This document shows positions 5,281 through 62,668 of a stretch of 64,000 nucleotides of DNA, piece after piece. This DNA comes from Meandrina meandrites (Eukaryota > Cnidaria > Anthozoa > Scleractinia > Meandrinidae). Below the pieces are notes generated by a model. It searched no databases. It saw only the letters and a list, made by a program, of their open reading frames with translations, and had not been told where the DNA came from. Position 1 is the first letter of the stretch; each line of letters starts with the position of its first letter. Both the position numbers and the translations under genes were made by a program. The DNA is taken from positions 42,339,395 to 42,403,394 of the forward strand of contig OY855905.1 of the NCBI GenBank assembly GCA_963693305.1. Direction: 5' to 3'.

Positions 5281-5321
5281 ATTACACGGCAAAACTGGGA
5301 CAGGATGTAAACAGAATCAAG

Positions 5322-7440: not shown

Positions 7441-7465
7441 GCAGATATGGGCCACCGTAACAAGC

Positions 7466-11300: not shown

Positions 11301-11304
11301 TTAA

Positions 11305-13850: not shown

Positions 13851-14400
13851 TTAAGACTCACGGAGGAGTTCATAAAAACGTCATTTGCCCATACAAAATG
13901 ACAAATAAAAATAAGTATTCTCTTTTTCACATAATTCACCTTTATTTCAAGAGAATAACAACTCGTTTGCAGAATAAAAAGCAAAACAAGCAATCGGTAG
14001 TTTTGAACAACAACAATTATTTTTAGCTTCATTCCAGTTATTGACAGTAACAAAAAATGACCAATTTACCATCGCCAAGACATAATTGTTCAATCATACT
14101 GGATTTCATTCAAAGTATCTTAAACAATAATTCACCCAGGAGGTTTCATTCAAAGACAGATGGTGGTTTTACCGTTTCCACTACACCTCTCAGCCTAGAA
14201 ATACTAAGCGACTTTAGTTTGGTATTCGAGGGAAAAAAAATAGTCGAAATAAAGCCAAATACAACGAAACAAGATTGAATCGAGAAAATTTCTCATGCTA
14301 TCGGAACAGTGCCACGTTAACGCTTTTAGCGTCCCCTTATCATGACTACTAATACGGGACACAGTAACGTCTTAAAATCAAATAGTGTAAGATGAAGGTT

Positions 14401-18181: not shown

Positions 18182-21100
18182 ATGATGACCCTAGTGTTTT
18201 TCGTCTTGGCTACATTCTTTATTAGGATTCAAGGTAAGTAGCTTGTCTCTTTGCCAATATTATACACTAAATTTTAGTTCTTTGCTGTAAAATTTCTGTT
18301 TTTGAAGAAGTTTAATTGGTCGGCCGTATTACTGATGGAATGTGTTACAATATATGAGTCAATTCGAAAACCACGCAGAGAGCCGTAAAAAAGCAGCAAA
18401 ATCATTTACCCAGTTTTGTGCTTGAACATTTTGAAAGTATTTTATTACTGGTGTTTGATACGCTGAGCTTACGCCACCTAATGTTAGACCCCAATTTCCA
18501 AGGTATAATCTTCCTTATGAGTAATAAAACGAGGTTCACAGGCAAAATTGATCTGTACCATAGTTTGAAGAAGAGACCCCTCTACTAGCTATGTTCAGAA
18601 AGGCCCCTCAACTTTTGATTTCTGTAAAGTTCAGATATGAAAATATTCCAATTCTCTTGTTTCTTATTCATTTCATTTTCTATTGTAGGTATCTAACTGG
18701 TCGCTTTTTCAAGGTATTAAAGAATAATTGGTACTTATTTTTCATCTTTAATTTTCTGTTTAGGAAATCCTGTTCCTGAATTTCTTGATGACTGTCCCGG
18801 CGGATCCGGCGACTGCACCCGTAAGTCGTTTCAGGCAAGCCTTAAACGAGGAATTATATCCCAAATTGTTAGACTAGCACATCTTTATTTTCTAATATTG
18901 TTTAAAAATGTTTCTTTGTAATTACTTGCTATTTTCACTTATCGTCACCAATTACTCTTTGCTCGGAGAGTTCAGTACAGTTTTGTAAATTTCGCGATTT
19001 ATTGGTCGTGAACATACGTAACATCTTTCACCAATGAATCATCTACGCTGGCAAAAATAACCGTTTCGGGAATTCCTCGTCCAGATTGCTATTGGAGTAG
19101 AAAAATATAGAAGAGCTACAATTTTGGATGTAATTAATTAGAGCATTGTGGGGAGAGGTCCGACTTTAAAATACATGTATATAAGTATAAGCTTACTAAA
19201 CCCAATCCACATTGTTTTTCTGTCCATTCAAGCTGCGCCGCCACCACCAGGAACGTCACCACCACCAGGACCGTCACCACCACCGCCCTCTCCATCTTCC
19301 TGCGGTGACCGTCCAACGTCCAATGCACGAATCGTTGGTGGACAGGAATCGGTGAAGAACAGCATTCCATGGCAGGCTATGCTGCGAACCGACGCAGCCC
19401 AGTTCTGTGGCGGCTCGCTGATCAGTAAACAATGGGTGTTAACGGCTGCTCACTGTGTTGAGGGTTCATCAGCAGGAAGCTTTAAAATTTGGTACAGTTT
19501 GTCTTTTGTGGCTGCTACCCTGCATGCATTAATATGGTCGAGTCATTGTGTGAAACCGTCCAAAGAGAAAGGGAGCGGAAAAGTTCGCTTCAATGAACAC
19601 GACAGCAATATTCCTATATAATTCTAAGGGAACAGACCACAAACTCAGTGGTAGTTCCTGTAAATATATAAATTGTCGGTAAATATATAAATTGTCGTAC
19701 CCCTTCATCGGTAGGATGCCTTTAAATATATGCAATTTCACATTTGGTTTCGGCGGCGATTTCGTTGTATTTGCCATAAAAAAAATGGCAGTTAATTTTA
19801 TCGGAAATTTTAAACATGACGAACACGTGGTAAAAGAAAACCAGGTGTCAAAAAATCGTCTGGATATTAACCCTTAATATGCTAAATTTACTCCAAAAAA
19901 CACGTTTTTTAACCGTTAAATCGATTTTTTTGGCGCTACGGTGCTAAATTTCTCTAATCTTTGCCGGAAATGCATTTTCTCACACTGCAGTAAGATTTTG
20001 AGGAAGATTTCATGTAAAAATGTACAATATTTTACTTTGACGCATGCGCATAAGCCGAACAGTTCCGATTTTTTTCCTCGCTGCGTTGCTTTTCGTTTAT
20101 CTCTGCTTTCTTATTATCTCTACCTTCTACACTGTACATCCTTTCTTTTGACCTGAAAAGTTTCGATCTTTAGCAATGAAAAGTTGTGGAAAGTACATGA
20201 TCAAGCACAGGTATATTGGCCTATTTTACCACCAATTTTGCACCAAAAGCTGACCACGTTTATTTCGATTAGCTCTGTCAGATTGCAGTCAATCGTCAAA
20301 ATGGAGAGTCCTGTGGAAAGATCTATCCAACTGGTATTAGTTGCATATCCCAAGAATCTGCTGACGTGCAAATTCGTGACGTCACAAGTGCTTGAATGGA
20401 CATTCCTCCAAATCCCGGAATAATCCGGACTTAGCATATTAAGGGTTAATTATTTAACGTGAAACCACGCGTTGTGGCGTGCATGCCACGGTGTTTTGAA
20501 GCTGGTAACGAACGCTTAAAAAAATGTAACACATCTCAAAAGGTACACAACCGCCGCTTGTTTTATTTGTTTTGTTTGTTTGTTTGTTCTTAAAATGTCT
20601 TTTTTCGTTAATTTACTTTTGGTTTGTATTTCCATTTCGTTTAATTGAATTAAATAACAAATTGCAAATTAAACATATTTTGCTCTTTTTTCGCCTAGCA
20701 GGTAAAAAAGTTATTTTTTTTGTAGCTTTCTCTCACTTTTTGCTTGCGCTTTATTCTAATCTGATAACGGTTTAAACACTTTTAAGGTTATTTACTCATA
20801 TTTGCATTTAAGAGCACATGTTCACAAGAATCAAACAAAATCGAAAATTCTTGGCAAGTGTCGACAAATGGATTTCGCTTATATTCTTACCATAGGTAGG
20901 TCTTTATGTGAAACAAATACCAGCATACTTAGTTTGGCTGAATATCGATTTGTTTTCGAGAAAATCGATAATCCTTGAAAACCGCCATATTGCCACTTTC
21001 GGAGCTCAAAATTTATGCCGAGTTTCGTAGCTTTGCGTGAAAAAATAAAGAACTCTGGAAGGAAAATACCGGCCAAATGTTGTAGAATGATATCAAGGAA

Positions 21101-22700
21101 GTACGTCGAAAGCAATTTTAGTCCTTCGTGTCCTTTTATTTACAAAATATAATTAAATTCATTCGACACACTTTTAATAGGGTTCAAAATAGGTCAAACT
21201 TATCGTCTAATTTAAGTATGTGCGAAGCGAAATAATTGGTCACAAATTCCGTATTTGCAAGTCAAAGGACTGTTCTTTACGACTTTAGAAAGATTAGCTT
21301 GGGAAATGATTTCCTGCGATGCTTTCGAATTTCGAAGTTGCCTAAAATTCGTCAATTTAACTAATCGTGGAGATCCGCCGTTTATGTAAACATTTCACGC
21401 AAAGTTGAATTCTTCCCGACGCGAACTTAACTGTGTCTTATAAAAACGTAGACATGTTTACCTTGATGTTGCTGATGCATTTTAAGCGTTGTATTCTTCA
21501 TTCACGATAAAACCCAAGCCCGCGGTGAGGTTAGTTAACCGATTTTCTCGACGCCATGTGTCATTAATTTCCTCGTCTTGAAGTGACACTGATCTCTTTT
21601 TCATTCGTTCTTGAAAACATTCCAGTCTCAAGTGATTAACCTAACAGCCATACATATTCATGCTTTAAATCAGCTTCGAACTGAGAAGAAGAGGCAGATA
21701 AACCGGTTCAGGAGACAAACCGTCATTTCAAAAACCGCCATTTGTCCCAAGGCAGCTAATTTATTCACAAGGACAATTTCACCTGAAATTTACAACCACT
21801 GCCGTGACAAAGTAAGAAGCAAGCACCGAACCTTTTTGGTATCTGGTTAAGGTATTTTGCTGTTATTATTTTAATTTGAGCTTAAAATGACACAGTACAC
21901 AGTTGGACTGACTAAACGCAGCATAAATTTTGAGCTCCGAAAGTGGCAATATGGCGGTTTTCAAGGATTATCGATTTTCTCAAAAACAAATCGATATTCA
22001 GCCAAACTAAGTATGCTGTGATTTGTTTTATATAAAGGCCTACCATAGGTAAAAAAAAAAAGCGAAATCCATTTTTCGACACTTGCCGTCTTTTGTCTGA
22101 CCGTTGGTAACATTGGCTCTTAAGTGTAATATCAAACTGTTACCCTGTTTTTTTAGGCTGGGTGCCCATCGCAAGGAAACCAAAGAGGATACAACACAGG
22201 AATTCAACGTGATAAGAGTTGTGTCCCATCCTCAATACAATTCCAATACCATGCAAAACGACATTGCACTGGTCAAGCTCGACAGGGAGGCTGTACTAGG
22301 ATCCGGCGTCGGTCTTGTCTGCCTGGGAGACGATTCGTTCCACCTTCCGCTGGACGATCTTAGCAACCAATGCCTGATAAGTGGATGGGGAACTCTTGAA
22401 AGCGGAGGCAATCAACCGGACAAATTGCAAGAGGTCTTGGTCCCTCTTGTCTCTAAATCCGTGTGTCAAAACGCTTATGACGATCTTCACGACTCAATGC
22501 TGTGTGCCGGATTGAAAGAAGGCGGAAAAGACAGCTGCCAGGGTGACAGCGGTGGTCCATTGGTGTGCCAATACAATGGGAAGCATTACATTGAAGGAGC
22601 GACAAGCTGGGGAAGTGGCTGCGCCGGTCCTAACGCGTACGGCGTATACGCAAAGGTGCGTCACCTGAGAAGCTTTATCGACAGCAATATTCAGGCATGA
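18182..22700 (+). CDS. Secreted trypsin-like serine protease with proline-rich linker
   Basis: Four exons: 18182-18233, 18764-18820, 19233-19491, 22157-22700; GT-AG introns, phases agree, 303 aa. Residues 1-17 are a hydrophobic signal peptide starting [13 protein letters not shown]. Residues 18-60 form a short acidic, Cys-containing stretch, then a Pro/Gly/Ser linker ending in the Cys usually disulphide-bonded to the protease domain. The activation site is Arg68 before IVGG (69-72). The catalytic triad is His109 (TAAHC), Asp158 (NDIAL) and Ser254 (GDSGGP). The residue at chymotrypsin position 189 is Asp (Asp248), and the SWGSGC loop keeps Gly at 216 and 226, so cleavage after Lys/Arg is expected. 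It is presumably an extracellular zymogen, in digestion or matrix processing. Intron 3 (2.7 kb) holds two inverted-repeat elements. I chose the first of two adjacent ATGs; the second would also work. A polyadenylation signal follows at 22767-22772. Confidence 0.9.
19871..20445. mobile_element. piggyBac-like MITE in trypsin intron 3
   Basis: Ends CCCTTAATATGCTAA and TTAGCATATTAAGGG are exact inverted repeats flanked by TTAA (19867-19870 and 20446-20449). A CCC start next to TTAA is typical of piggyBac elements. 575 bp, no transposase. Confidence 0.8.
20853..22087. mobile_element. Inverted-repeat element in trypsin intron 3
   Basis: Arms of about 168 bp: GGCAAGTGTCGACAAATGGA at 20853 and its near-complement ending at 22087, sharing ATTATCGATTTTCT/TTTGAGCTCC-like inner segments. 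The spacer of about 900 bp has no recognised gene. No clear target duplication was seen. Confidence 0.7.
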
Positions 22701-23239: not shown

Positions 23240-24889
23240 CTTTTAGGAAACAGATTTTGCTTTGGGAAGTCCTTTGGTTTTCGATCGGAATGAAAAATTT
23301 CCAGTATCGACAGGGAAACTCGTGTAAACAGATCTCTTTTCAACCGAATGATTCGTGTATATGGCAAGGAACCAATTTGTTGCAGTCAATCGTAGCTCAG
23401 ATATCAAAGTGTGTAAGACTTTTACAAAAATAGAAATATTTTTCTGTGACGTACCGGCAAGTAACAACGTTAGGAAAAAAATTAAACTTGATTTTTCCAA
23501 GGAAATGATAGAAATTACGAATAAAAACCAACCACGTACTTTTAAGCTCATTTTCTACTGAGTGATATAGGGTTCCAAGGCTAGCAATTCAGTTATTACA
23601 AAGAAAACACAGTCCGCTTTACGGTGAAAGGATGTGGGTCCCCATCTTAGTAAAAAACAAATGATAATAAAATGTATATTAGAAGGTGACAGTTTATTGG
23701 CTTCTCAGTGATATATAGCTTTCCGTTGCTTATATTAAAGTAGAACGCGAAAGGCAATTTTCCTAGAAGGCACCTTTGAATACCACAGTAACCTTAATAA
23801 GTTGTAATTCACTTCTTGTAAAAGTGCAGACGAAAATGTTTCTTGGTACATCAAGAAGGTTGGTACACCGCTAGTTTCGCTGGGCACTTCGTAGTAGTGG
23901 GAGGTTGGAAAAGGGAGTATTTATCTACGAAGACACTTACTGTAATAGCTCGAATTTCGTTATGTACTAGAAATCACGGTTGCGCTTCAAAAAGTAGTGT
24001 GTCGGAAAAACGGGTTATCGGTGTTGAAGAGAATATCAATAAAGAATACATGTGTACAATGCTGAACTTACAAGCATGACAACGAAACAATAAATGACGA
24101 AGCTGCTTTTTAGCGCTTGGCAACATCAAGGAGTTGGGTTTTTGTTCCATTATTTATGGCAAAAAAGAAACAATTATCTCTCTATTATTTGAGTCAAATC
24201 GGTTGAAGGCAAACATAAATAAGGGGAAAAAGTAAAATGACAACGTAACATTTTGGCTGGACACAGCTAATTCAATAAAGATTTTCCGATAAAACTATAT
24301 TTTTCTCAACTGGTTCTGACTGATGATTGCTTTTTACGCCATTCTAGGTAATTTTTGGTAACTTTTGTTCACGGATCAGTTAAAAAAATTAAAACACTTT
24401 TATTAAACCCAATCTATCTTTGTCGAAAAATTAATTTGGTTCTATTTGGTGAGTATTAACGTATGAATAATATCTAATTTAAATTTAGATGTGACGTCTT
24501 TGCAAACTTGAAAAAGGCATTGTCTATTTTAGGAAAAATAATGTTTAAAAGAAATTTGGTTTGCCAATAATTTACACAAAGACTTCTGAATGTTGGTCAA
24601 TAAATTAAAGACTTAAATGAACAATAAAAACAGTAGACAATAACTCGCATTATAGGGGCGTATTTAGAAAGGGTTAAGTCCTGCGTAGTTTTTATTTTTC
24701 GCTATTTTATCTTTCTATGGCCTAACCTTCTCAACTCGAAGTGAGATAGCAACAATAATGGCGGTAATATTGGATTCAGCCAAGTGGGGTGTGCTTTGTT
24801 CTTGTCCATCTATCCACTTCCCTCTACTACCTTAACACCGCCTTTGAACCTCTCACAATTACATCCACTTCACTCCACCTTGAGTTGGT

Positions 24890-25111
24890 CAAACCTCAGT
24901 AAACGTCTGAACTCATAATTTAGCTAACAGATTGGAGGAAACCCATTAGTGGCATAAAAGAAATGTTAAGCATGACAAGCTGAAAAATAAACGAAGAACA
25001 AACTATTTAATAACAATAAAAAAAATGTCAACCTACTTTGGGATAAATCTGCAGCAGCGCCATTATTCGGATATCATTGTGTCTCGACCTGAAAAGGACA
25101 GCACAGGCAAA
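24890..25111 (+). promoter_or_regulatory. Promoter and 5' leader of the MAM-phosphatase gene
   Basis: A TATA-like GGATAAAT at 25041-25048 precedes a leader containing catattattcggatatcattgtgtctcgacctg-type sequence. The stretch (tggaggaaacccattagtggcataaaag onward) is strongly conserved with 39890-40109 before the MAM-protease gene, which argues for shared control. Confidence 0.55.
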
Positions 25112-28100
25112 ATGAAGTCGATGATCTTCCTTCTTCTGGCATTTGCGGTTTCTCGTGGTGAAGGTAGGCATAAAAATATTTTCTTTGCCGTCATATGTTG
25201 TTTCAATACCCTTTCTGCCGGAACGAGGTTACCGGGGCTGAGTCCCAGCATGCAATAGACCTAGTGCCCAGTCCGGACAGTACGATACTACAAGATCGAA
25301 TAAACAGGGCTAACATTGCAGTGGACCTATTTTTAGTCACACATAGTAAATAATGATTGTCTGAACAAAAATTGCTTCACTTGAAGATGGGAAGCGGATG
25401 AACTATATGGATCTTGGAAATAAGGAAGGATTGTTCCATTTTTAGTTTAGCCTGCTTGAAAACCTCCATTTTCTAGAAGGTACGACAATAGGCCATTTCC
25501 GAATTGCCTTTTGGCTCTGTTTCCAAACGAGTATTCGTGCGAAGCCATCCAAACGAAAATGACTGATTTTCATGAAAATAGGCGTGAAGGTTGAACACAT
25601 TTTCATATGAATAGTTTCGCACGTAGACTCGTTTTGAAACAGAGGCAAAGGGGAACTCGGAAATGGTCAATTGCTGATCGTTTTCATTTTCTTAGATGCA
25701 GCCTGTGATTTCGAAAAGGGCTTCTGTAACTGGAATCAGTCCACAGCTGACCAGTTTGACTGGACACGCAAGTCTGGTCGTACTCCATCTAGTAAAACGG
25801 GACCAGACTCTGACAACAATGGAAAAGGTACTAACAGAAATTTAAAAATTGAAACGTCAAACATTGTTGTTCTGTTATTCCCGCCACTATTCTCGACTAC
25901 TGGAGAAAGTGTTTTTCTAGTCCTGATACATGCATTCGTAATAAATGCAATTATTTTTGTTTCAGTGGTACTAGCAACTTTGCCTTCCGATTGAAACAAC
26001 TGACACAACAAAACTTCTATCCATTATTTCTCCTTTTAGGGTTTTACATTTATATTGAAACCTCTCGTCCCCGTAAAGTTGGCGACAAAGCCATTCTGAC
26101 TCTTAAGGGTGCCAACAGCAAATCCGTTTGCCTCTCTTTTTACTATCATATGTATGGAAAATCAATCAACATCCTGAACATTTACAACCGTGGACAACTA
26201 ATTTGGAACATGAAGGGTGAGCAGGGGAACCTCTGGAAAAAGGCTGAAGTGTCAATCAGTGGTGATTATGATGTAAGTGTTCATGAAACGAGCCATTTTG
26301 TTTTTCTCCTTTAGCATAATTATTTATTCGTTTCACATTTACATCACTTCCGTAAATGAATAGTATACATGTATGATGTAATTTCTTTCCATTTTCCAAC
26401 GCTCTAATGTTTTGCAAACATACCTCGGCATTTCATTTTCAATTTATTGAATAAACTTTTAACTTAAATGGCCTGAAGTTGGTCTTATAGTTAGTTATGT
26501 TTTCCAATTATTTCATAAGCATCATTTTCCCAATATCTATTTAGGGATAATCGAATCAAAGAATGCTGTATTAAATGTTTAGCGGAAGGTGCCATGTAAA
26601 TTGTAATATGGAAAGGGTGATGAATGAAGATTTATTAATTAGGATTCTTAGCCAATATTTACCAGATGCGCACCGAAATAGTCGGGTCCCCGACTATCTC
26701 TCGGAACGAGTTACTTCATTGGTTTTAAAAACAATAGATAACTGGTCATAACAATGCGCCTAGCCCTTAACAACAATAGAGGTAGTGTTCATAGCAGGCG
26801 AATGAAAATAGAGGTTCCAGAGAGGTAGTGTCTTACTGACATAGCCCACCTCTACTGTGAGAATAGAAAACATTTTTATATTGGATATATGCAACTGAAT
26901 GGGCTAAACAATTCTTTCATTTTCCCCAATGCGAGCTCAGCTCAGCTCAAAACACTTATGACAGTTTTGCACCCCATTTTTTTTGTTTATGTATATTCAG
27001 TTCAATTCGTTTATTCCTTGCAAATAACTTTCCTATGTAATGCAATGTGATTTAAGACTTAAGTTTATTTACGTGTCAACAGGATTTGTACAAACTAATA
27101 GGGAGCATGTCTTCAAACCTTTCCTTATAGCTCAAGATCGAAGGAATTAGGGGCACATCCTACACCGGTGACATTGCTCTAGATGACTTGTCCGTGGTTG
27201 ATGGACCTTGTGGTGTGGTGGTACCTACAACGGTACCAACCGCCCCACCACCTACAGGTAGTAAGCCTCTTTCAGGAGCTCGGTTAGTTGGGAGGCAAAT
27301 TTGTACTTTGGTTGCGGTAGAAAGTGATTCGACATCCGGCGTTTTACTTTTACAAAATTGGCTTTTGGCTCTATTTACGGGAAATCTCTGATTACCCCAA
27401 TGGCGTTCTTGAGAATCAATGGATACCTCATTTGATTGCTTTCATTTGAAGTTTCTCGCTTTTAACAAAACGTACCTGAAGAAATTTAAGTATGTCAAAT
27501 AATCCCCCTTTCCTTTAGACATTACAGCTACTTGTGTTGCGACGCAAAATATGTTTAAAGTTTTTAGTACACCTACGTTTGTATTATGAGCAGCTGCAAT
27601 AGTTTTTAGTGAAGTCATTGATTTGTTCTTCCTTGCGACTTGTTTTGATATAAACCAGACACATTACTTCATACTAATATAAGTATCATGATAGTTAAAA
27701 TATGACGGATCACCAAGACCTACTTGAACTATAAATTCTTAACAATAACATTCTTACAAGAGATAAACATACTGAAATACCATGTACCGCAGAACGTGGA
27801 AAATGATGCATCCTGCGGGAGCTTCATGTCAATTTGCCATTGCGCTGGACAGTTTGCTCACTCTCGTCTTGCCTCAGTCATAACCTTTTGACGCTTTAGG
27901 AAGCTCAATTTCGCCCGATCTTCGACTTAATTCGAAGCAACTTCGCAATTTTTCATTAGCATGTCCAAACGTTTCAAAGATCATTTCAGCGTAAGATTTA
28001 AATTAACAGAGGAATAAGTTGAAAAGGACATTCGAATGACCTCTGAAAAACGCGTTCAAATGCCACGTGGACTATACCAGTAATAGGTGGTTCAGCGACA

Positions 28101-31100
28101 CATAAAATAGATCAGGTCATTACTGGAAGCGAAAACTTTCTGAAAAAGACTTATTAGGCAAAGTTTGTCAGTTTTCTTATCTATGTATCCTTACATACAT
28201 GCAATGGGTTTAGTCGCTGATAGCACAAAGCTGTTTTATTGATGGTATAAATCGTCTTACTCATCTTAGTTAGGCCTTTTCTTAATGGAAGCAATTATGC
28301 GTGCGTTGTAATATTGATCCCGGCTCTAAAGGAAATGATCAGTATCCGTGTAAAGAACTCAAATGAAGGATATTTGCTCAAAACGATATTTGCTTCTTCT
28401 TTTCTTCCAATCAGTTTTATTTTGATGGTATGAAAGGAAAGCAAGATGAACCAATTATGTTAGATAAATCTAGTTTGCCTTCCTAGTTTGCCTTCTAGTA
28501 TGCGCTCCAAATGTTAATTTTGAAACAACTGTAAAATAATAACTAACTGTAAACTTTCATTCACAACTCATCAGCTGGCAGTGGGAACATTCTGAATAAT
28601 CAGGACGACAACCAGTGGTATAAAGATGGTATCAAGCTAATTCAAGACAACCTTAAGGTAAAACCAAACACCAAAACTGCAAAAAACGCTATTATCTTCG
28701 TGGGCGATGGAATGGGCATCTCAACTATCACTGCTGCCCGTATATTAGATGGACAGATGAAAGGCAATTCAGGTGAGGATAATGTTTTGAGCTGGGAGAT
28801 GTTTCCTTGGTCGGCCATGGTGAAGACGTATTGTGTAAACGAGCAAGGTACAGATTCAGCCGCTTCGGCGACAGCGATTCTGACTGGAGTTAAGACTGAC
28901 GATGGTAGGTGTTAAATTAACAATAGTGTTCAGTAATCTTTTTTTTTTCAAAATCGACCGGTGTAGTCTATCCGAGTCCTTTTGGGCTTCCATTTCCTAT
29001 TTGTTTTTTCTTTCGATACGACGGTCTGGGCATTCAAGTTAACCGTGCCAGAGATATGTAGTTTCTCTTCTTTCTCTTGACGTTTTTTTTCTGGTCTACT
29101 GACCAAGACAGAAACATTACGCGGATATTTGTGGTGCTACGTAATTGGTAAGGAATCTATCACTTCCCCTTAAATCAATCACTGGACCACACATAAAAAT
29201 CAGCCTGCGCGCCTAACGAGGAACGAAAATATCAGAGAAGGAGGAATCAGACAGACCGAAGGAAATAAGGACTGTACAACGGGCTTACGCACTGAGTTCG
29301 TTAAACGGCAGACAGGCAGACAAGACAAACGGACAGACAACAAGACAAGGACATCATTTTCAGTATAAATTTTCCTTTACTTATTAGCAATGATTAATGT
29401 AAAAATCTGAACAATGCAAAAACTTCATTGAGACAAAGTTGGAAAGACGTAAAGCGACGTAATATTGAATTGTATGTTACTTCCAAAATGGGGGGGGGGG
29501 GGGGGAATAAACAGATCATAACATAACATCTGCTTAAAAATCAGATAACAATTCATCTCGGAAGCGACAACACTAGCTCAAAGGTTATTAGCTAAAAAGC
29601 TTAACTTTCAAAAACAAGAATAATGTATTGACCATTTGTTTTTATTCGTGTTTCATTTTAACTATCAGGTGTTCTTGGAATGGACGAAACTGTAGCACGA
29701 GGCGATTGTTCTTCTGCGAGTGCAAATCGAAGAGCGATTTCTATTTTATCGTTGGCGGAGATGGCGGGGATGTCAACAGGGATTGTATCCACCGCGCGAG
29801 TGACGCATGCCACTCCCGCGAGCGCGTACGCAAATTCTGCGGATCGCGGGTGGGAGTGTGATGCCAACAAGAAGGCTGATGCATCTGAGTGCAAAGATAT
29901 TGGTATTTTTTTGTTGTTCCAGCATCGAATTTCTTTTATTAAATGAGAACATCAATTATTACATTTTCATAAAAAAACATGCCGCCAAGTTCAAATTCTA
30001 TTTCTATTTATAAATATAACAAAATACCATTGCTCAGCTTACAAGAATTTTTTTAATTAATAAAAATGAAAGCATGTTTTAGTTCCAAACATCTCCACAA
30101 GAATTTTGTCTAAAACGAAAAATATAGCCATGTGGAATATTAGTCTGATATATAGCTATTGATGAATATTAGTCTGAAATGCGTGTTAATCAAAATGTTT
30201 ACTTTTTAACTTCGTTGTTATTGTTGTTGTTGTAAACCTGGAATCTGTTTTAAAAAAAGTTAAAATGAAAGGACGAAAAGGACAATTAACTAGCTAGATC
30301 TTAAGAATATTTAACACTACAATGCGCTGCAGGGAGCATCGCTCCACTGACAGTTCAATGTCGAGTACTTACGCTTGTAGACAACACGATGGGAGAACGT
30401 ATTTTTGGAAAGAAAGCGTCGGTGGCCACTATTATTTATTAAACCATTCATTTTCAGCCTTGCAACTTGCTGAATACCCATATGGTGATGGAATAGAAGT
30501 CATCTTTTCCGGGGGTCGTGGAAAATTTATGCCTCGACATCAAAAAGACCCTGAGTATCCGTATAAAAAGGGAGAGAGACTGGACGGCAGAGACCTGATT
30601 CAGGAGTGGGTGGGCAAACATCCGAACTCCAAGTACGTGTGGAACAAATCCGGGTTTGACCAAATTGACGTGAAGAACGTTGATCACGTGATAGGTAAGC
30701 AATGGTTTCTACTAAAAAGGAGTCAAGATGTGGAACAAATATTTTTACTTCCTGATTATGTAGGATTAAGTCATGATTTTTACGTCAGTGGCCACCGTTT
30801 CTATCGCTACATTTTCCTTTCTCGTTCAAATCCATGAACCACACAATTGAAACGTAAATAGTTAACTGAAGCCCATTTCAACTTCACGAATTAGGGTAAA
30901 GCTGAAGCTGTTCTAACCTGAAAGTTTTTATAGTCAAAATACTCAGCGCGTGCCGCTTAGAATTCCGGAAAAGTTTTGATTAACGGCGAACGGATTGCAT
31001 TATTGGTTTCAAACATTCAAATTTAATTTGAATATTGTAGATCATCCAACCGTGAACACGTGAACACGTGAGCCTGTCAGAAATGAAGCAATTTGATTGG

Positions 31101-34100
31101 TTTATTTTTTACAGGTTCACGTGCTCACGTGTTCACTGTTGGATGATCTACAATATTCAAATTAAATTTGAATGTTTGAAACGAATAATGCAATCCGTTC
31201 GCCGTTAATCAAAACCATTCCGGAATTCTAAGCGGCACGCGCTGAGTATTTTGACTGTAACAGTCTCTAACGGATTTGTTTGGATTCCTCTGACTTACTG
31301 GATAGTTCGGTTAGATCATTTGGTTGGTATGTTGGATGGTAATTAGTCTGTTTTTGGTTGGTTGGTTGGTTGGTTGGTTGGTTGGTTGGTTGGTTAGTTA
31401 GTTGCTTGGTTAGTTGCTTGGTTACTTGGTTGGTTGGTTGACGGACCAGTTTAGGAAAAGTCATCAGTTAGGTGATTAAACCTTGAATCGTTTCGAAATT
31501 ACACATCTTCACATTTGGAACGGGCCACGAAAGGTTGTATCCTGGATCTAAAAAGGATTAAGTAAGTTGCTTTAATGATCTCTGCATATGCCAATTACCA
31601 TTGCAGGACTATTTGAGTATTCCCACATGAAGTATGAAGTGGACCGCGCAGACGATACAGCTGGTGAACCGTCCTTAGCGGAAATGACGGAAAAAGCCAT
31701 CCAAATACTACAGAAAAACCCTAAAGGATACTTCTTATTAGTTGAAGGTATTAATAGAAGTGCAATATCTGCTTGAAAATAGGCTTTTTGCTATTTTAAT
31801 TCCAAGTAGGAATTTATACCACTATTCAGGAGAGTTGACGTTTTGAGTGACCTGGTTCTAGTAGCTATAACCGCACTGTAAATATGCCTACATGGCAAAA
31901 ACCCGTTTTCTAACGTATATAAAGTTGACGTTTCTACCGATAGAGTGCTAAAACAAAAACGTTTGAAACTTTAAAATATTATGCTAATTAAAACTCGGAT
32001 GCGAGAACTTTCATTTACTTTTCTTGCGTTTAAGTACAAGTGCTACACAGTACACGGAAATCTTTTATTAATCAATTATGTTGAGTTGCACACTGTATCT
32101 GTTAATATGCAGCATTTGCCTATAATGGCACTCCCTCTGTCATTTTGATTATCACTGCAAGTTCCTTTATCCGTCCATCCGTCCACCCAGTCGCTGGGAA
32201 CAAGTTCAGGGTGATGACAAGTTCTGTTCTTCGACACCGGACTGATCCACGTGCATAATTTTCCGTCAAAGTTGCCAAGCATTGGAGCAACAAATTTTTG
32301 AGTATTCCTGTCAATATGCCAAGAAAGGCACTAATTCCAGGGACTGCAGAAACCATCCCAGCATGCAGGGAAGAGGTTGGGAAGAAAATGGCTTTGCAAA
32401 AGGACTTGGAAAGGAGGCGTAGCGGTGCCGAGAATCAGGGTGTGCACAATAACAATCGAATGCTTGCTTAGGTAAACATTTCCTGCGCCTGCAGGTTTCT
32501 TACCGAATCGAGAACCTTCGGGCAAGACCAAAACCCTGGGAAACTGCTTTTCCGTATTACTTCGTACGTTTTTATGCATGTAGCTAATCGCTAAAAAAAA
32601 CCAGTAGCTTTACTCAATAATATATAAATAGATTATCTTTTAGTAATAACACGACGTATTCTCTGCGACAGGTTCATTGGCAGCATTTCGTCAGTGTATC
32701 AGGTACTGCTATAAGAACAAAGGACCATGCAGGCATGCCTCACGGCCATGCCTCCCTCCCTCCCCCCCCCCCCCCCCCCTCCCCGTAATCCATTAATTGC
32801 CACATCGAAACCATTTCTCCATCTATTCATAGATCAATCCAATAATTACTTTCTTCCGATTACGTCACGTCACTAATTACGCAATATTTCCTTTCGCAGG
32901 AGCAAAAATTGATCACGGGCATCACGCAGGTCAGGCGGTTAGAGCTATAAACGAAGCAGTTGCTATGAATAAAGCGGTATCCAAGGCGTCAAAAATGATA
33001 AATCGAGGTAACCAAGTGACCTGGTGTTTGTGTATACATTTACTAAAGAAAATTAGTAGAATTCTACTAGTACACTAATGCAAATGCTGCAATGTGATTG
33101 GCTGAGCTATTGAACACTATCAGCCATTAGTGTGCAGTTGCCGAAGGTCGTCCACAAAATGCGACGTTTTTATTGTTTTTCCGAAGTTTTGGAAGGAAGT
33201 TTAAATGTAAATGGATAATAAAATTCCCGAGAAGACTAAAAGAAGGACATTAGCGGTTTCTTGACTTTAAAAGCTTGAAATTATTGAAAAACGGGTACAC
33301 GCGCGTAAACAACTGCAAATTTACCAAGGACAATTCAATGCGTGCGATTTTGTTAAAACGTTAAGTTCGATAATGCGTAGGAAAATAATTAGAAACCATT
33401 ATTTGCGTTTATTTCAGTCAGAATTCTACTAAAACAATTAGATTATTCGCTCTCAATTTCTATGAGGTGATAGTTGATTCGACCTGCGGCCTCATCAACT
33501 ATCACCTCATAGAAATCTCGAGCTCATAATCTAATTGTTAATTAGTATTCTCCGTTGTTATATTTTCTTATAAATCAGCTCCTCCCCGCAAAGAACAAAA
33601 TTCAAAGTCCCGCAAACTTCACAAATTCTGAAAACAGTTAAGGCAGGGAAACAATGCATAAGACTGTTGAGTTACTTGTTTTAATTGCACTCTCACTCAG
33701 CCGTGTACGTACGAGGGTTAAACGACTTTCCATTCCACTAAATAACAACTCTTTACGAGAATTTACCTTGTCCTGTGAGTCTCGTCTTACTACCATCTTT
33801 GAAAGCAGCAATGGTAAAGCAAGTATTTTCACAAAAAAAATACTTTTTTGTTGCAGACGAAACACTGATAGCGGTAACCGCTGACCACTCACACGTCTTC
33901 ACCATCGGTGCTTACCCCCAGCGCGGAAACCCAATATTTTCCACTGTGCGGGAAAGGGGCGGCAAGTTAGCAGCTGGTTCCGATGGCAAGACATACACCT
34001 CTCTTGGTTACGCTAACGGCCCGGGAGCCTCTCGGGGTGCTCGTCCGGACCTTAGGGGGGTGGACACAACGGACAAGAACTTTCGTCAACAAGCTACAGT

Positions 34101-34427
34101 TTTGCTGGGCGGTGAGACTCATGGAAACGAAGATGTTGGTAAGTAATATTTTATTTGTTTATTTATATGCTCGTTCTTCATTGTTTATTTATTTATTTAT
34201 TTATTTATTTATGTTCGATTATTTTTTGTGGTCGGTCTCCTTCAAGTGTTTCCCAAAGAAACGGAGTTTTTCCTTTTACAGGACTATTTGCGGACGGGCC
34301 TGGAGCCTACTTGTTTCATGGCGTGTTTGAACAGTCGTATGTTTTCCACGTGATGGATCATGCGTTATGTTTGAGTAGCAGCAAACAGAAATCATGTGAA
34401 AAGCATGTCGAACGAAGAGGGGCCTAA
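25112..34427 (+). CDS. Secreted MAM domain-alkaline phosphatase fusion
   Basis: Eleven exons: 25112-25163, 25696-25827, 26040-26272, 27131-27257, 28575-28904, 29669-29902, 30458-30694, 31607-31747, 32900-33007, 33857-34138, 34282-34427; every junction keeps frame, 673 aa. Signal peptide 1-17 ([13 protein letters not shown]); MAM domain about 18-165 (CDFE...CNW start, IALDDLSV end); Pro/Thr linker to about 181; alkaline phosphatase from about 182. Phosphatase landmarks: Asp226 (VGDGMG), nucleophile Ser276 (DSAAS), His338/Thr340, Arg351, Glu495, Asp500/His504 (DHGHH), Asp541/His542 (ADHSH), His620 (THGNED). These cover the two zinc sites, the magnesium site and the substrate arginine of animal phosphatases. 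The C-terminus is polar and lacks the hydrophobic GPI-anchor tail of the mammalian enzymes, so a soluble secreted phosphomonoesterase is likely. The MAM half is nearly the same as in the protease gene at 40110-51632. Caveat: the MAM-phosphatase join crosses a 1.3-kb intron and rests on phase agreement, not a transcript. Polyadenylation signal 34522-34527. Confidence 0.87.
25491..25668. mobile_element. MITE in intron 1 of the MAM-phosphatase gene
   Basis: GGCCATTTCCGAATTGCC at the left pairs with the complementary GGAAATGGTC region at the right, with a further internal pair GAAACAGAGGCAAA. It occupies the intron that in the protease paralogue carries the Pro-rich exon. Confidence 0.6.
29490..29505 (+). 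repeat. Poly-G run (16)
   Basis: Sixteen consecutive G in a phosphatase intron; the length is likely variable or poorly sequenced. Confidence 0.9.
30931..31257. mobile_element. Mariner-type MITE in a phosphatase intron
   Basis: Arms of about 130 bp begin (T/C)AGTCAAAATACTCAGCGCG and are flanked by TA at both ends (30929-30930 and 31258-31259). A CAGT start with a TA target is typical of Tc1/mariner derivatives. Confidence 0.7.
31354..31440 (+). repeat. (GGTT)n microsatellite
   Basis: About ten perfect TTGG units, then an imperfect tail with TTAG and TTGC variants. Confidence 0.9.
32762..32779 (+). repeat. Poly-C run (18)
   Basis: Eighteen consecutive C in a phosphatase intron. Confidence 0.9.
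33435..33528. repeat. Palindromic MITE in a phosphatase intron
   Basis: CAATTAGATTAT...TCTATGAGGTGATAGTTGAT is followed by its near-perfect complement after a loop of about 15 bases. Confidence 0.65.
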
Positions 34428-34527
34428 CTGACAGCGGCGCTGGTAGACACTACTTTCACGTGCTAGACGAGTATCCTACCTTGCTACCGATGTGTGGCTG
34501 ACGGGACGTGAAGATGTCTTAAATAAA

Positions 34528-36999
34528 CAACCGAGTTGTAGTAATTAAAAAAAGAATTAAAGTAGATCTGACGGGATATACTGTTTTACCTGGTGTTTTA
34601 CGAACCGGTCTCACTTGTATTTTATGGTCAGTTTTGTAGTGGTATTATTAGAAATTTCTTATTTTAATGACACTCAGTTTTGACAAATTCATATAACAAT
34701 AGATTGCTTCTGTTTTGGAGTTATAGTTGACGTTTGCCAGCGGAAATTTTAATGTTTCGAGAAAAGAAGCATTATCCAGCAACGGAGTTACAGTGTTTAA
34801 GAATTATGCCAAAAACTTCTTCTCGATTATCGGTACGGTTACCAAATTTCTTATCCACGAAGCGCTCGCCATTAACTAGGGAGAGGTCGAAGACAAAATT
34901 TCGGGCGCCTATCACCTGATAGACTGAGAGAAAACCATTTTTTTGTTACGGTCGATGAAATCACGGACAAGTTCACAGTCCGATTATATTTCGCCCATAT
35001 TGGAAGGCGCTATCTCTACACTTGTCACATAGAATTTACTAAATCTATCAAAAGCGAGAGACAATGCACGTTTCACCATACTTCCAAACACCGAAAAGAA
35101 GCATTAAAAATAAGAGGCCCAGCGGAGTAGTTTCGACATATTTCGAGATATTTAATTTGTGAAAGTTCAGTACAACACTGTGCGACTGCTTGCACAAACT
35201 TTCGCATTTTGAATGAGGAAGTTGTTCTATCACTAAAATTTAATTTGCTTGTTTTTCAACGGTTTAGCGGTAATTACGCTTACGCTTAGCGCTTACAAAT
35301 AGGGAAGTGAATTTAACTCGCATCATATAATTAATCTTCTTTTTTATTATTGGCAAACTGGCCCATCGTGAAAAACGGCAATCCGTTTTGTTCCATTAGC
35401 GATTTCGAACACCGCGAGGGTTACTCAAAAAACTTACACCACCCCCTTCCCCAACGATTGTAGTGACCCAAGACTAGCTCTGCTAGAATTCTAATGATGG
35501 CCAATAAATAAGTTCGCCCTTTTCCCGTAGCACCAGTCTTGCAATCCATTTAGTTTTATTTGCACTTAGCACGACGACTGGTACGAGCATTTCTTTAATA
35601 TGAGATCCGGGAACAGACAAGCCAAGAAGTTTTATTCAGTGCAATCTCTTTTGCAGGTTCTTAGGTAAAAATGGTGCCTCTCTTTTCAAAACTTTTTCAC
35701 TTGCTTAACGAATCAGCCATTAGGAGTGCGCGTCTGATCGAGATATCAGTGCAATCTCTATATACCTATATAACAGTTTTTTTGTTCTAAGTTTTATACC
35801 TTACCCGTTTAAACACCACCACTTGGCCTAAAGCTTCCTCCAGGGCTCGAAAGAGCAAGTATTTCAGTTAGCCTAACAAAGTTTTACTTTCGGGTGGAAC
35901 CTTCCTGTATAGACCACTATGCCAAAATTCAAGGATAAGGATTTTTTATTCTTGTTTTGGTTTGTGTGTGAAGAAACAACAGCCAATAAACTCGTACATA
36001 CCAATGAAAACTTTTTGAAAACTTTTTGGCCTGTTTAAACGTGCTCATTGAACTGCCATTACTTTAAAAAAAATGGCAACCCTGTTTACTAACCAACAAT
36101 GGACTAAAAAAAATTACACCAAATTGCATGTTTAAATTGCAGATAAGATTTACACATTTAAAACTGTTTACCCTGTTTAAAGGAAACAGAAGGGGGTGTG
36201 AAATGACAATGAATCTACCAGTAATATTTACAGCTAGCTCCTGCCTTGTTTAATTAATGTATGACAGATGGAACAATTTTATGGAAATCCCAACCTGTTA
36301 TGACATCCCTTCGCCCAACAAATATAATTCTTAACCCATTGTTATTCTTTACAAAGAGGCGAATAACTTAAGAGTGCGACTTAATTGGTGATCAAAAATC
36401 TGTACAAAATTCCTCTTGCCAAAACTAGAGCACTGACGAAAACACGTTTTTGCAGATAATTTAATTCTGTAATATTTTAGGAATTTGAGGTTATGTAACA
36501 AATTGCAATTGTCATGCATATCTTGTTCATTTGAATGTGCAATTGACTATCAAACGTGGGTAAGACAATTTACGATATTTTCCATTCATTGTGTAGCTAA
36601 ATAAAACTCGACAAAAATCAGTTTAATTTGTAGACTGAGAATACGACTTTTTTACGAGATCAGTTGCAACGTGTTTCCAGGACATGTGAGTCAGAAATAT
36701 TACACTAAATTTTATCTTTTAATTGGCTGCTGCAAATACAAATTGCTGTTTTTCTACTGGCATATCTACACAAAACAAAATTGATTGCAAGGCTGCTCGG
36801 CAAAAGGCAAAATTTATTGACCAATATTTCAGCTAGCAGAGATACTAGCCTTCACGGCTAGTTCTATATAAGAGTCGTCTGATATGATCATTTCTGGGGC
36901 AACAGATCCGCCAAAAGAAAAGCGAAGCAGTTTTATGCAATTTTACACATTAATATATTTTTTTAAGTTTTACATATATAATTAGGTATTTTTATTACA
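34528..36999. other. Intergenic DNA between phosphatase and MAM-protease
   Basis: AT-rich, no supported exon, no clear inverted repeat. It separates the phosphatase terminus from the second copy of the duplicated upstream block. Confidence 0.55.
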
Positions 37000-39889
37000 T
37001 GTAAAGCGCTTTTGAATATCGAGGATTTTTACGCCTGCACAAGTCACACAGCCTTATTGTCAGAGCAACCTCCCTCAACTCTTTAAGACGAAAACTTGAA
37101 TTAATGGAGTATTTTGATACCAAAGTGCGTGAGGCTTTTACGAAAATCAGAATATGTCTTCTGCGAAGTACCTGCAACGTTAGGACAAATTCAATTGCCC
37201 AACTTTTAAACCGGTTTTGAGGAAATAATAGAAATTTGGAAAAAGCCACACTCAAATTTATAGTTCTTTTACTCCTGAACGATAAAGTACAGTATGTTTG
37301 CCCATTGGACGTTCCAAAGCTGGTAATTCATTATAAAAGGAATGCATTCAGTTCTACGAGTAAGAAAAAGAAATTGCTTTACAGTGATATATAGTTTACT
37401 ATGGCTTCTTTTAAAGTAGAACACGAAAGGGCATTTTCCTTAAGGTATCTTTAAAGGTTAATAAGTTGTGATTCGTCTCTTGCAAAGATGAAGATAAAAT
37501 TTTTACTATGTCATTTCAGGTCTCATATTACACCTTTTGGTTTAAAAGGGGGGTATCCGGGTACTTCGTTGCATTGGGAAGTTCTTTTTAAACAATAGTT
37601 TTATCGCGAGTTTTTTGTATTGTGAAGTTCGTAATCTCAGCAGGCACTTAATAACGCGAGTTTCGTTCTGTGTTACATTGTTCGTTAAATCAGGGTTTGC
37701 ATTTTAGAAGGTCATCAGTGTATCTACAAAGTATGCATGTGTCCAATGCTGAATTAACAAAAATGACAAAGGAATAATACAAGACGATGTTGACTTTAAT
37801 CTATTGACAACTTCAAGGAGATGTCTTCTTGTTCCATTCTTTGTTGCAAAACTCTCTATTTGAGACCAAAGCCTAGAAGGCAAATATGCATTAGAGAAGA
37901 AAGGAAAATGACTTAACGTACTCCTTGTCAAGACACAGCTTATTCAATAAATTATTTTGGATAAAACTAGATAAAGTATGTTATTTTGAATAGAGGAAAA
38001 ATACGGGAGAGGTACTTTCCACATATCGGACGTACATTTTGAGTTTCAAAAGATATCTAAAGAAATATAGTTGCTGTCAATACCACCGATTAAATTCACC
38101 TGATTTGATCGTCTCCAAAAAGAGTTTTCACATCTTCGCACATTTTTTTCACAACTGGTTTTCCTTAATTTTGCTTTCGTTTTACGCTATTTTTTTTTCA
38201 AACTTTTGCACAATAATCAGTCAAAACAAAAACTACAAACATTTTAGTTGAAACCTGTCTAACTTTTTCCGAAGATTTATTCAGTTCTGTTTGGTGAGTA
38301 TAAACGTACGAATCATAGCTAATTAACTTAGGTATGACATCTTCAACAACGGCGCCATTCTCGTTTGAAAGAGGCATTTTTTAGGAACAGCACAACGCTC
38401 AAAAGATTACTTTTTTACCAAGAATTCACACACAGATTTCAGAAACCCGTGCCTTAAAAAACATGATTACTTTTATGGGTAAGGTGTGGGGCATACAAGG
38501 GTGTTTCATTTTGCTTTACCCTGGTGTTAATTTCTCTGTTTTCCCTTTTTTCTTTATTTTTCCGAATTGAATATGCTTGGTTTACAATACATGGTGTATT
38601 TACAAACGTTAAATCCCGAAGTCTTTCATTGTTTGCTGCTTTTATCTTTATTTTAAAACAATTTCTTCCTGAAGTGAGAAATTGCTTTTATTTTCAGTCA
38701 AGTGGGTTGTGCTCTGTATTTTTGTCCATCTTCTCCTCTATCTTAACGCCGTCTTCCCACCTCTTACAATTAAATCCACTTCACTCCACCTTGAGTTGTT
38801 CAAACTTCAGTAAGCGTCTGAACTAATAATTATATTGGAGGAGTGAATGCTACGAAGAATACATGTGTACAATGCTGAATTAACAACAATGACAAGAAAA
38901 CAATACAAGACGATATTGACTTTAAATGATTGATAACTTTAAGGAGCTGGGTTTTTTGGTAAAAACAAGACATTTATCTCTCTATTTGAGATAAATCCGA
39001 AGAAATCAAATATAAATTAAGGAAGAAAGAAAAAATGACTTAACGTAACTCTTTGGTTAGACACAGCTTATTCAATAAAGGTTTTATTTTCTAAAAGTAG
39101 TAACGTTTGTTTTTTAGGAATAGAGGAAAAATACGGGGGAAGCTCTTTTCACAGATGGGACCGTACAGTTTGGTATTCAAACGCTGATAAAATTCACCCT
39201 TTTTTAATCTTCAACAAATTGAAGTTTTTCCACAACTTGTTCTCATTGATTTTGCTTTCTTTTACGCTATTTGAGTTAAATTTCTCTTTCTTACCTTTGC
39301 ACATTTATCGGTCAAAACAAAACTCAAACATTTTACTTGAAACCAATCTACCCTTCCTCAGGGATTTATTGGCTTCTATTTGGTGATTATAAACATACGA
39401 ATCATTATTATTTAAGTTTGATGTGACGGTTTGAACAACAGCGACATTCTCATATTAAAGATTTCTTTTTCGGGAAGAGGATAACGTTGAATAATTAGAA
39501 CATAGATTTCAGCAACCCGTGCCTAAAAAAATGGTTACTTTTGAACGTAAGGTGAACAGCATAAGACGTTTCATTTTTGCTTTACTTATAAATTTCTTCT
39601 ACTATTTTCCCTTCTTTTTTTTTTTTGCTTGTACATGATGTCAATACATGGTGTCGAGATTTACTAACTTTTAATCCCGAAGTCTTTCCATTTTTTTTGT
39701 TATTGTTGTTTTGCAATTTTTATGTTTACCTTTATATTTTTCTGCCTGAAGTGAGATAGTCGCCGCAAAAGACTGTTCTTTTCAGCCTAGCTGGGATTGT
39801 GCTGTTCCATTTTCCTGACCATCTCCCCCCTGACTTCGCACCTCTTACAATTCAATCCATTTTTACTCCACCTTGAATTGGTCAAACCG

Positions 39890-40109
39890 CAAAAAGCACC
39901 TTAACTAATTATTAAGCTAATAGATTGGAGGAAAGCCATTAGTGACATAAAAGAAAAGCTAAAACAACGCAAGCTGGAGAAACAAACGAACAACAAACTA
40001 TTTAATTACGATGAAAGGGTGGCAACCTACATAGGCATAAATAAGTCTACAACAGTGCCATCATTCGGATATCATTGTGTCTCGACCTGAAAAGGACAGC
40101 ACTGGCAAA
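39890..40109 (+). promoter_or_regulatory. Promoter and 5' leader of the MAM-protease gene (duplicate)
   Basis: A TATA-like CATAAATAAG at 40036-40045, with the same leader (TCGGATATCATTGTGTCTCG, then ACCTGAAAAGGACAGCAC) as the MAM-phosphatase gene up to the shared ATGAAGTCGATGATCTTCC. Confidence 0.55.
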
Positions 40110-51632
<11,523 letters not shown>

Positions 51633-62213: not shown

Positions 62214-62668
62214 CTTGCTGAAATAAACAGTAAACAAAAATCAGATTTCGGGCTCAATACAACCACCGCCTTATTATAAATTTATTAACAACTGCCTATT
62301 TCAGTAGATCACTCGCAGAGACCGTGCTGCACCATGGGATGGTTAGTTCTCAACTTGTTGCCCCCGTTGAGTGGATTGATAGAAACAACCAAAAGATCAA
62401 ACGTCTAGATATGCATATTGACACACGTTTCAAACTTTATCCTCAGGACCGCAAGCAGTAGGGTGCGATGGGTGCGTCCGCAAACGCCGTCGGCACGAGC
62501 CGCAAAGTACCGCTTAATCTGAGAGGGAGGGTTAAAATGACTCTCGGAATACAGCAAAAGTGGACTTGATTTTTCAAAATTTCCCGTATAGATATACCCC
62601 CTGATCCGCTCTAGACGCTCATGCTTTGCTACTGGTACCCACCCAAGCAAAATCCTGCCAACAGCCCT

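What the first reader, a model, noticed from the sequence alone, without database searches (positions are those of the whole stretch)
25112..51632. One signal peptide-MAM cassette in front of two unrelated enzymes
Seen: two genes 15 kb apart share promoter-proximal DNA, leader, signal exon, three MAM exons of identical length (132, 233, 127 bp) and a VVVPTT(V/A)PTAPPPT linker. One then joins an alkaline phosphatase, the other a chymotrypsin-like protease, both through a phase-1 junction. Known: phase-1 introns favour domain shuffling in secreted animal proteins, and MAM domains usually mediate adhesion or oligomerisation. Inference: a MAM cassette with its own promoter was duplicated and captured a different catalytic domain, putting a phosphatase and a protease under the same control and perhaps in the same extracellular complex. 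I do not recall a described MAM-alkaline phosphatase family, but could not search.
Basis: partly seen in the sequence, partly recalled or inferred. Interest (0 to 1): 0.85.

Follow-up and report, generated by a model that had tools for sequence, protein, structure and literature searches.

The report
Coral phosphatase wearing a protease's front-end
In what is likely a stony-coral genome, a duplicated stretch holding the upstream DNA, signal-peptide exon and MAM adhesion-domain exons of a predicted secreted protease gene lies in front of alkaline phosphatase exons, and together they are predicted to encode a secreted phosphatase with the protease's adhesion domain, a pairing that our protein searches found elsewhere only in the coral Oculina.

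Summary
Gene A (25112-34427) reads signal peptide-MAM-linker-alkaline phosphatase, 673 aa. Gene B (40110-51632) reads signal peptide-MAM-linker-chymotrypsin, 466 aa. All splice phases fit.

The fusion is unlikely to be a reading error. An Oculina patagonica protein prediction has the same two domains (P0034, 675 aa). No alternative signal-peptide exon was found between MAM and phosphatase. The joint falls where coral phosphatases leave their signal peptide (AGSG against AVSG). MAM-chymotrypsin occurs in Desmophyllum, Porites, Pocillopora and Acropora. MAM-phosphatase was found only in Oculina and here, so the protease gene most likely donated its front-end.

The phosphatase groups with coral phosphatases lacking a hydrophobic GPI-type tail. 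The last MAM exon shows 0 synonymous differences between A and B in 35 sites, against 13 in 47 for MAM2, which suggests gene conversion.

Transcription, co-expression and a shared complex are untested. MAM-protease exon shuffling in anthozoans is known (PMC6767649); I found no paper on MAM-phosphatase. Verdict: new architecture by a known mechanism.

The parts
23400..25111 (+). upstream DNA of gene A, homologous in blocks to 37116-40109 upstream of gene B
   Evidence: blastn blocks 67-83%
25112..25163 (+). gene A signal-peptide exon, [17 protein letters not shown], phase 1 out
   Evidence: 49/52 nt identical to B
25696..25827 (+). gene A MAM exon 1 (132 bp, phase 1-1)
26040..26272 (+). gene A MAM exon 2 (233 bp, phase 1-0)
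27131..27257 (+). gene A MAM exon 3 plus linker (127 bp, phase 0-1)
   Evidence: 125/127 nt identical to B
27258..28574 (+). intron carrying the end of the main duplication (27330); no signal-peptide-like exon and no protease relic found
28575..28904 (+). gene A phosphatase exon 1 (330 bp, phase 1-1); opens with AGSG, holds D226 and the presumed catalytic Ser276
29669..29902 (+). gene A phosphatase exon 2 (phase 1-1)
30458..30694 (+). gene A phosphatase exon 3 (phase 1-1)
31607..31747 (+). gene A phosphatase exon 4 (phase 1-1)
32900..33007 (+). gene A phosphatase exon 5 (phase 1-1); D500, H504
33857..34138 (+). gene A phosphatase exon 6 (phase 1-1); D541, H542, H620
34282..34427 (+). gene A last exon, short tail ending [10 protein letters not shown], stop 34425-34427; AATAAA at 34522
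37116..40109 (+). upstream DNA of gene B, homologous in blocks to A's and internally duplicated (37717-38832 / 38842-39914)
40110..40161 (+). gene B signal-peptide exon
40934..41017 (+). gene B extra proline-rich exon (84 bp, phase 1-1), absent from A; similar stretch in Desmophyllum P0050
41561..41692 (+). gene B MAM exon 1
42117..42349 (+). gene B MAM exon 2
43390..43516 (+). gene B MAM exon 3 plus linker
45407..45495 (+). gene B protease exon 1 (presumed activation site R224/V225)
46142..46233 (+). gene B protease exon 2 (His265)
48958..49202 (+). gene B protease exon 3 (Asp314)
49921..50028 (+). gene B protease exon 4
51394..51632 (+). gene B protease exon 5 (Ser415, Ser409 in the 189 position) and stop; AATAAA at 51680

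Best explanation
Gene A is predicted to encode a secreted MAM-alkaline phosphatase, and it likely arose when the front of a MAM-chymotrypsin gene like gene B (upstream DNA, signal peptide, MAM domain, linker) was tandemly duplicated and joined, inside phase-1 introns, to phosphatase exons that had lost their own signal exon. Shown by sequence: the duplicated segment and its end in an intron, the intact phase-compatible gene models, the domain assignments, the same architecture in an Oculina gene prediction, and the joint aligning with the end of the relatives' signal peptide. Inferred: the protease gene was the donor, because MAM-chymotrypsin is found in both complex and robust corals (grouping recalled) while MAM-phosphatase was found in two genomes only; the phosphatase exons came in as DNA, since six introns remain inside them, from a phosphatase cluster that in Oculina lies on another contig; a later gene conversion copied the MAM3+linker exon between A and B. 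Likely working, untested: the enzyme would be made and secreted like the protease, probably from digestive gland cells, hydrolyse phosphate esters outside the cell, and be held by its MAM domain to other MAM proteins or to the cell surface. That hold would replace the GPI anchor, whose hydrophobic tail A and its nearest relatives do not have.
For: Gene models and phases. Pfam. P0034 of Oculina patagonica: MAM and phosphatase over the whole length, 137 of 164 aligned MAM-linker residues and 431 of 490 phosphatase residues identical. Joint AGSG against AVSG of P0101, P0102, P0103 and P0105. No rival signal exon in the joining intron, while the same scan finds the signal exons of A, B and the upstream trypsin gene. 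Only chance-level tblastn hits (E 3 or more) for protease in gene A's span or phosphatase near B. Tree of 25 phosphatase rows: A with P0034 100/99, next to P0101, P0102, P0103, P0105 at 97/90. None of these 6 has a strongly hydrophobic tail (best 12-residue mean 1.22 or less), while the other 4 rows of the surrounding 10-row clade do (2.27-3.01). Metal and catalytic positions are kept (roles recalled). MAM-chymotrypsin relatives covering 90-100% of B: P0013, P0050 Desmophyllum; P0053 Porites; P0055 Pocillopora; P0056 Acropora, 62-78% identical. AATAAA after both stops. Trypsin-MAM genes expanded in anthozoans, and exon shuffling is named among the routes that diversified Nematostella trypsins (PMC6767649); MAM domains on digestive trypsins can bind MAM-bearing membrane receptors according to PMC6733828 (passages).
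Against: No transcript or protein was seen. The Oculina protein is an unnamed gene prediction and might share an annotation error, although its linker differs by two inserted residues and several changes, as a real homologue's would. The window's own genome could not be searched, so other phosphatase copies and the source of the phosphatase exons in this species are unknown. Oculina contig identity is judged from contig length alone. Absence of a GPI tail in relatives also rests on gene predictions, and P0101's tail runs into a protease-like stretch. The MAM tree does not resolve A, B and P0034. dN/dS between A and B is 0.58 over the cassette, 0.36 in MAM2 but about 1.05 in MAM1 on few sites, so purifying selection on all of the cassette is not shown. 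The gene-conversion edges would have to fall near the exon edges, since the 70-base flanks of that exon are 53% and 75% identical; constraint on synonymous sites is an alternative.
Confidence: 0.75

Rival explanations
1. The MAM exons and the phosphatase exons are two separate genes: an orphan duplicate front-end lies upstream of a phosphatase with its own unrecognised first exon.
For: No transcript was available; a first exon that is non-coding, split or weakly hydrophobic would escape the scan.
Against: No signal-peptide-like exon with a phase-1 donor in 27258-28574, strict or relaxed; A reads through without a stop or broken splice site; Oculina P0034 has both domains in one model.
Confidence: 0.1
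2. Assembly chimera: the MAM segment was joined to the phosphatase locus by the assembler.
For: The region holds duplicate segments, which can mislead assembly; the window's genome could not be searched.
Against: The Oculina prediction has the same joint; the 70-base intron flanks of the duplicated exons are 37-76% identical, too diverged to be confused easily; splice phases fit.
Confidence: 0.03
3. Another order of events: MAM-phosphatase is old and was lost in most corals, or the cassette reached the phosphatase from a MAM gene other than B's lineage.
For: The MAM tree leaves A, B and P0034 unresolved within a group supported 86/93; A lacks B's proline-rich exon, as do P0053, P0056 and P0013.
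Against: 1 of 98 MAM hits and 1 of the 120 listed phosphatase hits has both domains, and it is the same protein; A and B also share upstream DNA.
Confidence: 0.12
4. The near identity of MAM3+linker between A and B reflects constraint on that exon's synonymous sites (splicing or RNA signal), not gene conversion.
For: Identity falls off close to the exon edges: flanks 36/68 and 43/57. In MAM1 the protein sites are mixed: A with B against Oculina 4, A with Oculina 2, B with Oculina 3.
Against: Protein changes also fit conversion: in MAM3+linker A and B agree against Oculina at 4 sites and neither agrees with Oculina against the other at any; in MAM2 A agrees with Oculina against B at 6 sites, A with B against Oculina at 4, B with Oculina against A at 1.
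Confidence: 0.3

Closest known systems
Anthozoan trypsin-MAM proteases (Nematostella 'tryptome', PMC6767649)
   Same: Gene B has MAM plus a trypsin-fold protease; exon shuffling and tandem duplication are among the reported routes.
   Different: Reported there are trypsins gaining domains; here the protease front-end, with upstream DNA, lies on a non-protease enzyme.
Animal alkaline phosphatases (tissue-nonspecific and placental types; Pfam PF00245)
   Same: Full domain, best solved relative tissue-nonspecific phosphatase (E 2e-124), active-site residues kept.
   Different: Extra N-terminal MAM domain and linker, no hydrophobic GPI-type tail.
Meprins and enteropeptidase (MAM plus protease)
   Same: A MAM domain on a secreted or surface hydrolase; both hit the MAM query among solved structures.
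   Different: Other catalytic domains and other domain orders (recalled); no phosphatase.
Oculina patagonica ACROYT_G007718 (P0034)
   Same: Same architecture over the full length; 83-88% identity; the likely orthologue.
   Different: Linker two residues longer; catalytic motif reads ESA in place of DSA; unnamed in its record.
Coral skeletal-matrix MAM/LDL-receptor protein (PMC4890752, passages seen)
   Same: Repeated MAM domains in a coral extracellular protein; the paper invokes domain shuffling for some coral skeletal proteins.
   Different: Long repeat protein without phosphatase; the paper's main text has no word starting with 'phosphatase'.

Membership tests
MAM domain (PF00629) | score above Pfam gathering cut-off, nearly whole profile | tested here: met
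   119.2 and 117.8 bits against 26.4, profile 1-157 of 158
MAM domain (PF00629) | four conserved cysteines (recalled) | tested here: met
   Four cysteines in each translated MAM, read
MAM domain (PF00629) | mediates adhesion or oligomerisation | not testable with these tools
   needs biochemistry
Alkaline phosphatase (PF00245) | whole domain above gathering score | tested here: met
   444.1 bits against 24.4, profile 1-423 of 423
Alkaline phosphatase (PF00245) | catalytic serine and metal ligands (identities recalled from E. coli and human enzymes) | tested here: met
   D226, S276, T340, R351, E495, D500, H504, D541, H542, H620; aligned, numbered
Alkaline phosphatase (PF00245) | phosphatase activity | not testable with these tools
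   no assay
GPI-anchored animal alkaline phosphatase | hydrophobic C-terminal GPI signal | tested here: not met
   20-residue tail, best 12-residue hydropathy -0.45
S1 chymotrypsin-like protease (gene B) | catalytic triad and GDSGGP | tested here: met
   H265, D314, S415; Trypsin 3e-65
S1 chymotrypsin-like protease (gene B) | serine in the 189 position (recalled) | tested here: met
   S409, six residues before S415
Anthozoan trypsin-MAM clade of PMC6767649 | position in the published protease tree | not tested
   its sequences were not fetched
Exon-shuffled 1-1 module | module bounded by phase-1 introns on both sides | tested here: met
   in A and B the MAM+linker block is entered and left in phase 1

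The most novel reading that the evidence does not exclude
A travelling secretory front-end: upstream control DNA, signal peptide, MAM docking domain and linker move as one unit in corals and conscript whatever enzyme lies behind them into the gland-cell secretion programme, with gene conversion keeping the docking exons of phosphatase and protease matched so that both enzymes work in one MAM-held extracellular complex.
Probability: 0.15. Interest if true: 0.8.

Novelty: new variant of a known kind. Interest (0 to 1): 0.55.

Why it matters
It is a readable case of domain shuffling: the likely donor type and the recipient lie side by side, the end of the duplication is visible in an intron, and a second species helps to date the event. 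Animal alkaline phosphatases are usually thought of as single-domain, membrane-anchored enzymes (recalled); here one likely traded membrane anchoring for a docking domain. It gives a direct test of whether moving upstream DNA plus a leader and MAM is enough to put a new enzyme in coral digestive gland cells, and bears on how corals might obtain phosphate from organic food.

Tried and rejected
Scans for a phosphatase-specific signal exon found none in the joining intron; window-wide the strict scan gives 18 start sites in 64 kb, so one 1.3-kb intron without a hit is not by itself improbable. Search for protease or phosphatase relics: chance-level hits only. Considered and dropped: lateral origin from bacteria, because the most identical named relatives are stony corals (Oculina 88%, Desmophyllum 80%) and the gene has introns; retrocopy, because the phosphatase part keeps six introns. 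Literature searches: MAM domain, alkaline phosphatase, coral: 0 papers; two of three terms: 79 papers, 20 listed, none on such a protein by title; MAM domain, cnidarian, trypsin: 5 papers, three of them opened by passages or sections; PF00629 with PF00245: 0; 1 paper, unrelated by title; nothing on the fusion by title or abstract start; one search returned 0. The phosphatase tree used 25 of the 79 phosphatase rows held, chosen by me to span corals, anemones and the nearest relatives. In the tail count 8 of 79 rows had no readable end motif and were not scored. The MAM tree used 9 rows and leaves A, B and P0034 unresolved.

Full report
What is there. Two + strand genes were rebuilt from the window. 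Gene A has 11 coding exons from 25112 to 34427 and encodes 673 aa. Gene B has 10 coding exons from 40110 to 51632 and encodes 466 aa. Every intron has GT and AG ends and the phases fit. Both leave the signal exon in phase 1, share MAM exons of 132, 233 and 127 bp, and leave the linker in phase 1. In A, every intron from the linker to the last exon is phase 1. Pfam finds MAM and Alk_phosphatase in A, MAM and Trypsin in B.

The duplication. Similarity between the A and B regions starts at about 23400/37116 and ends at 27330/43579, in the intron that follows the linker; beyond it only a 21-bp match at 27371/43583 (E 0.003) and a chance-level match (E 0.13) remain. The shared stretch therefore holds upstream DNA, signal exon, MAM exons and linker, with unlike stretches between the blocks. 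The last 40 or so bases before the start codon are nearly identical (alignment). Upstream DNA of B is itself duplicated once more (37717-38832 and 38842-39914, 68%). Nothing catalytic is shared: tblastn finds only chance-level hits (E 3 or more) for protease in gene A's span and for phosphatase around B.

Is A one gene? I found no signal-peptide-like exon with a phase-1 donor between the linker and the first phosphatase exon, also not with relaxed donor and hydropathy limits, while the same scan finds the signal exons of A, of B and of the upstream trypsin gene. A non-coding or weakly hydrophobic first exon would be missed. AATAAA lies 95 bases past A's stop. A protein predicted in Oculina patagonica, P0034, has the same two domains, start to end. 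Identity to A is 137 of 164 aligned residues in MAM plus linker and 431 of 490 in the phosphatase. In the alignment of 17 proteins, A's phosphatase starts AGSG where Desmophyllum P0101 and Oculina P0102, P0103 and P0105 have AVSG directly after their signal-like start. So the cassette stands in place of the native signal exon. No transcript was seen for either species.

Where the phosphatase came from. In a tree of 25 phosphatases (of 79 held) A and P0034 are sisters (100/99), next to P0101, P0102, P0103 and P0105 (97/90). These six have tails without a strongly hydrophobic stretch (best 12-residue mean 1.22 or less), while the other four rows of the surrounding ten-row clade have one (2.27-3.01), as GPI-anchored enzymes do. 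A further group, among others P0123, P0125, P0134, P0152, P0154 and P0173, also lacks the tail but begins with a hydrophobic stretch. Loss of the tail thus seems older than the fusion, though all rest on gene predictions. In Oculina the ordinary phosphatases listed are on a contig of 38,537,115 bases and P0034 on one of 46,518,285, which also carries S1 proteases such as P0223 and P0047 (contigs told apart by length only). The six introns inside the phosphatase part argue for a DNA copy rather than a retrocopy.

Direction. MAM-chymotrypsin relatives covering 90-100% of B come from Desmophyllum, Porites, Pocillopora and Acropora at 62-78% identity (P0013, P0050, P0053, P0055, P0056). Of 98 proteins matching the MAM part of A, 17 carry Trypsin, 8 carry astacin (two of them with Trypsin as well) and 1 carries Alk_phosphatase, by the precomputed Pfam domains. 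Of the 120 phosphatases listed (7956 passed the cut-off of 1e-60), 1 carries MAM, again P0034. Hence the protease gene is the likelier donor. These are limits of that database, of capped lists and of word-based candidate choice, not proof of absence elsewhere.

Gene conversion. Between A and B the MAM3+linker exon differs at 2 of 127 bases, both amino-acid changing: 0 synonymous differences in 35.3 sites, against 13 in 47.3 for MAM2 (Fisher p 0.0004). Signal plus MAM1 exons are also lower than MAM2 (3 in 38.6, p 0.025). The 70-base flanks of the MAM3+linker exon are only 53% and 75% identical. In protein, A and B agree against Oculina at four sites of MAM3+linker with no site the other way; in MAM2 A agrees with Oculina against B at six sites, with B against Oculina at four, and B with Oculina at one; in MAM1 the counts are mixed, 4 for A with B, 2 for A with Oculina, 3 for B with Oculina. 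A short conversion after the split from Oculina explains this mosaic; constraint on synonymous sites remains possible.

How it likely works. Active-site and metal positions are kept in A (D226, S276, T340, R351, E495, D500, H504, D541, H542, H620; roles recalled), so activity is expected but untested. The signal peptide predicts secretion. MAM domains on digestive trypsins are said to be able to bind MAM-bearing membrane receptors (PMC6733828, passages), and I propose the same for this phosphatase: docking by MAM in place of a GPI anchor. Shared upstream DNA makes expression with the protease in gland cells plausible, not shown. In Stylophora, alkaline phosphatase activity is among the terms enriched when phosphate is limited (PMC12316964, passages), which gives such an enzyme a possible use.

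What is known. The anthozoan trypsin-MAM expansion, tandem duplication and exon shuffling are described around Nematostella (PMC6767649: section 7 and passages, including parts of the abstract). A coral skeletal protein with repeated MAM domains is described, and domain shuffling is invoked for some coral skeletal proteins (PMC4890752, passages). I found no paper joining MAM with alkaline phosphatase. The architecture is new to the literature searched, the mechanism is known, and one unnamed database entry already has it.

Noticed in passing
18182-22700 (+): A third S1 protease gene, trypsin-type ([10 protein letters not shown]), with its own signal exon (18182-18233) and a proline-rich stretch lies just upstream of gene A; the region looks like a small protease cluster interrupted by the phosphatase. 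Its full exon model was not built.
   Followed up: partly
protein P0101 (Desmophyllum), residues about 550-608: A coral phosphatase without MAM ends in what looks by eye like the end of an S1 protease (DSGGP...WYLEGV): either a merged gene model or another phosphatase-protease neighbourhood. Pfam did not call it.
   Followed up: partly
11301-12153 and 13002-13854: Inverted repeat, 853-base arms 99% complementary with 848 bases between: perhaps a young mobile element.
   Followed up: partly
6111-6815 (-): Fragment of a reverse transcriptase (RVT_1, 2e-07).
   Followed up: no
4921-5296 and 7224-7459: Arrays of a short repeat in opposite orientations, giving long ORFs that are likely spurious.
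   Followed up: no
61191-62240 (-): Uninterrupted ORF of a galactosyltransferase (PF01762, 1.8e-45).
   Followed up: no
37717-38832 and 38842-39914: Tandem duplication (68%) of the DNA upstream of gene B; the strict signal-exon scan gives no hit between 35919 and 40110.
   Followed up: partly
protein P0034 (Oculina): The residue before the catalytic serine is E in place of D in the motif DSA of the other coral rows aligned.
   Followed up: no
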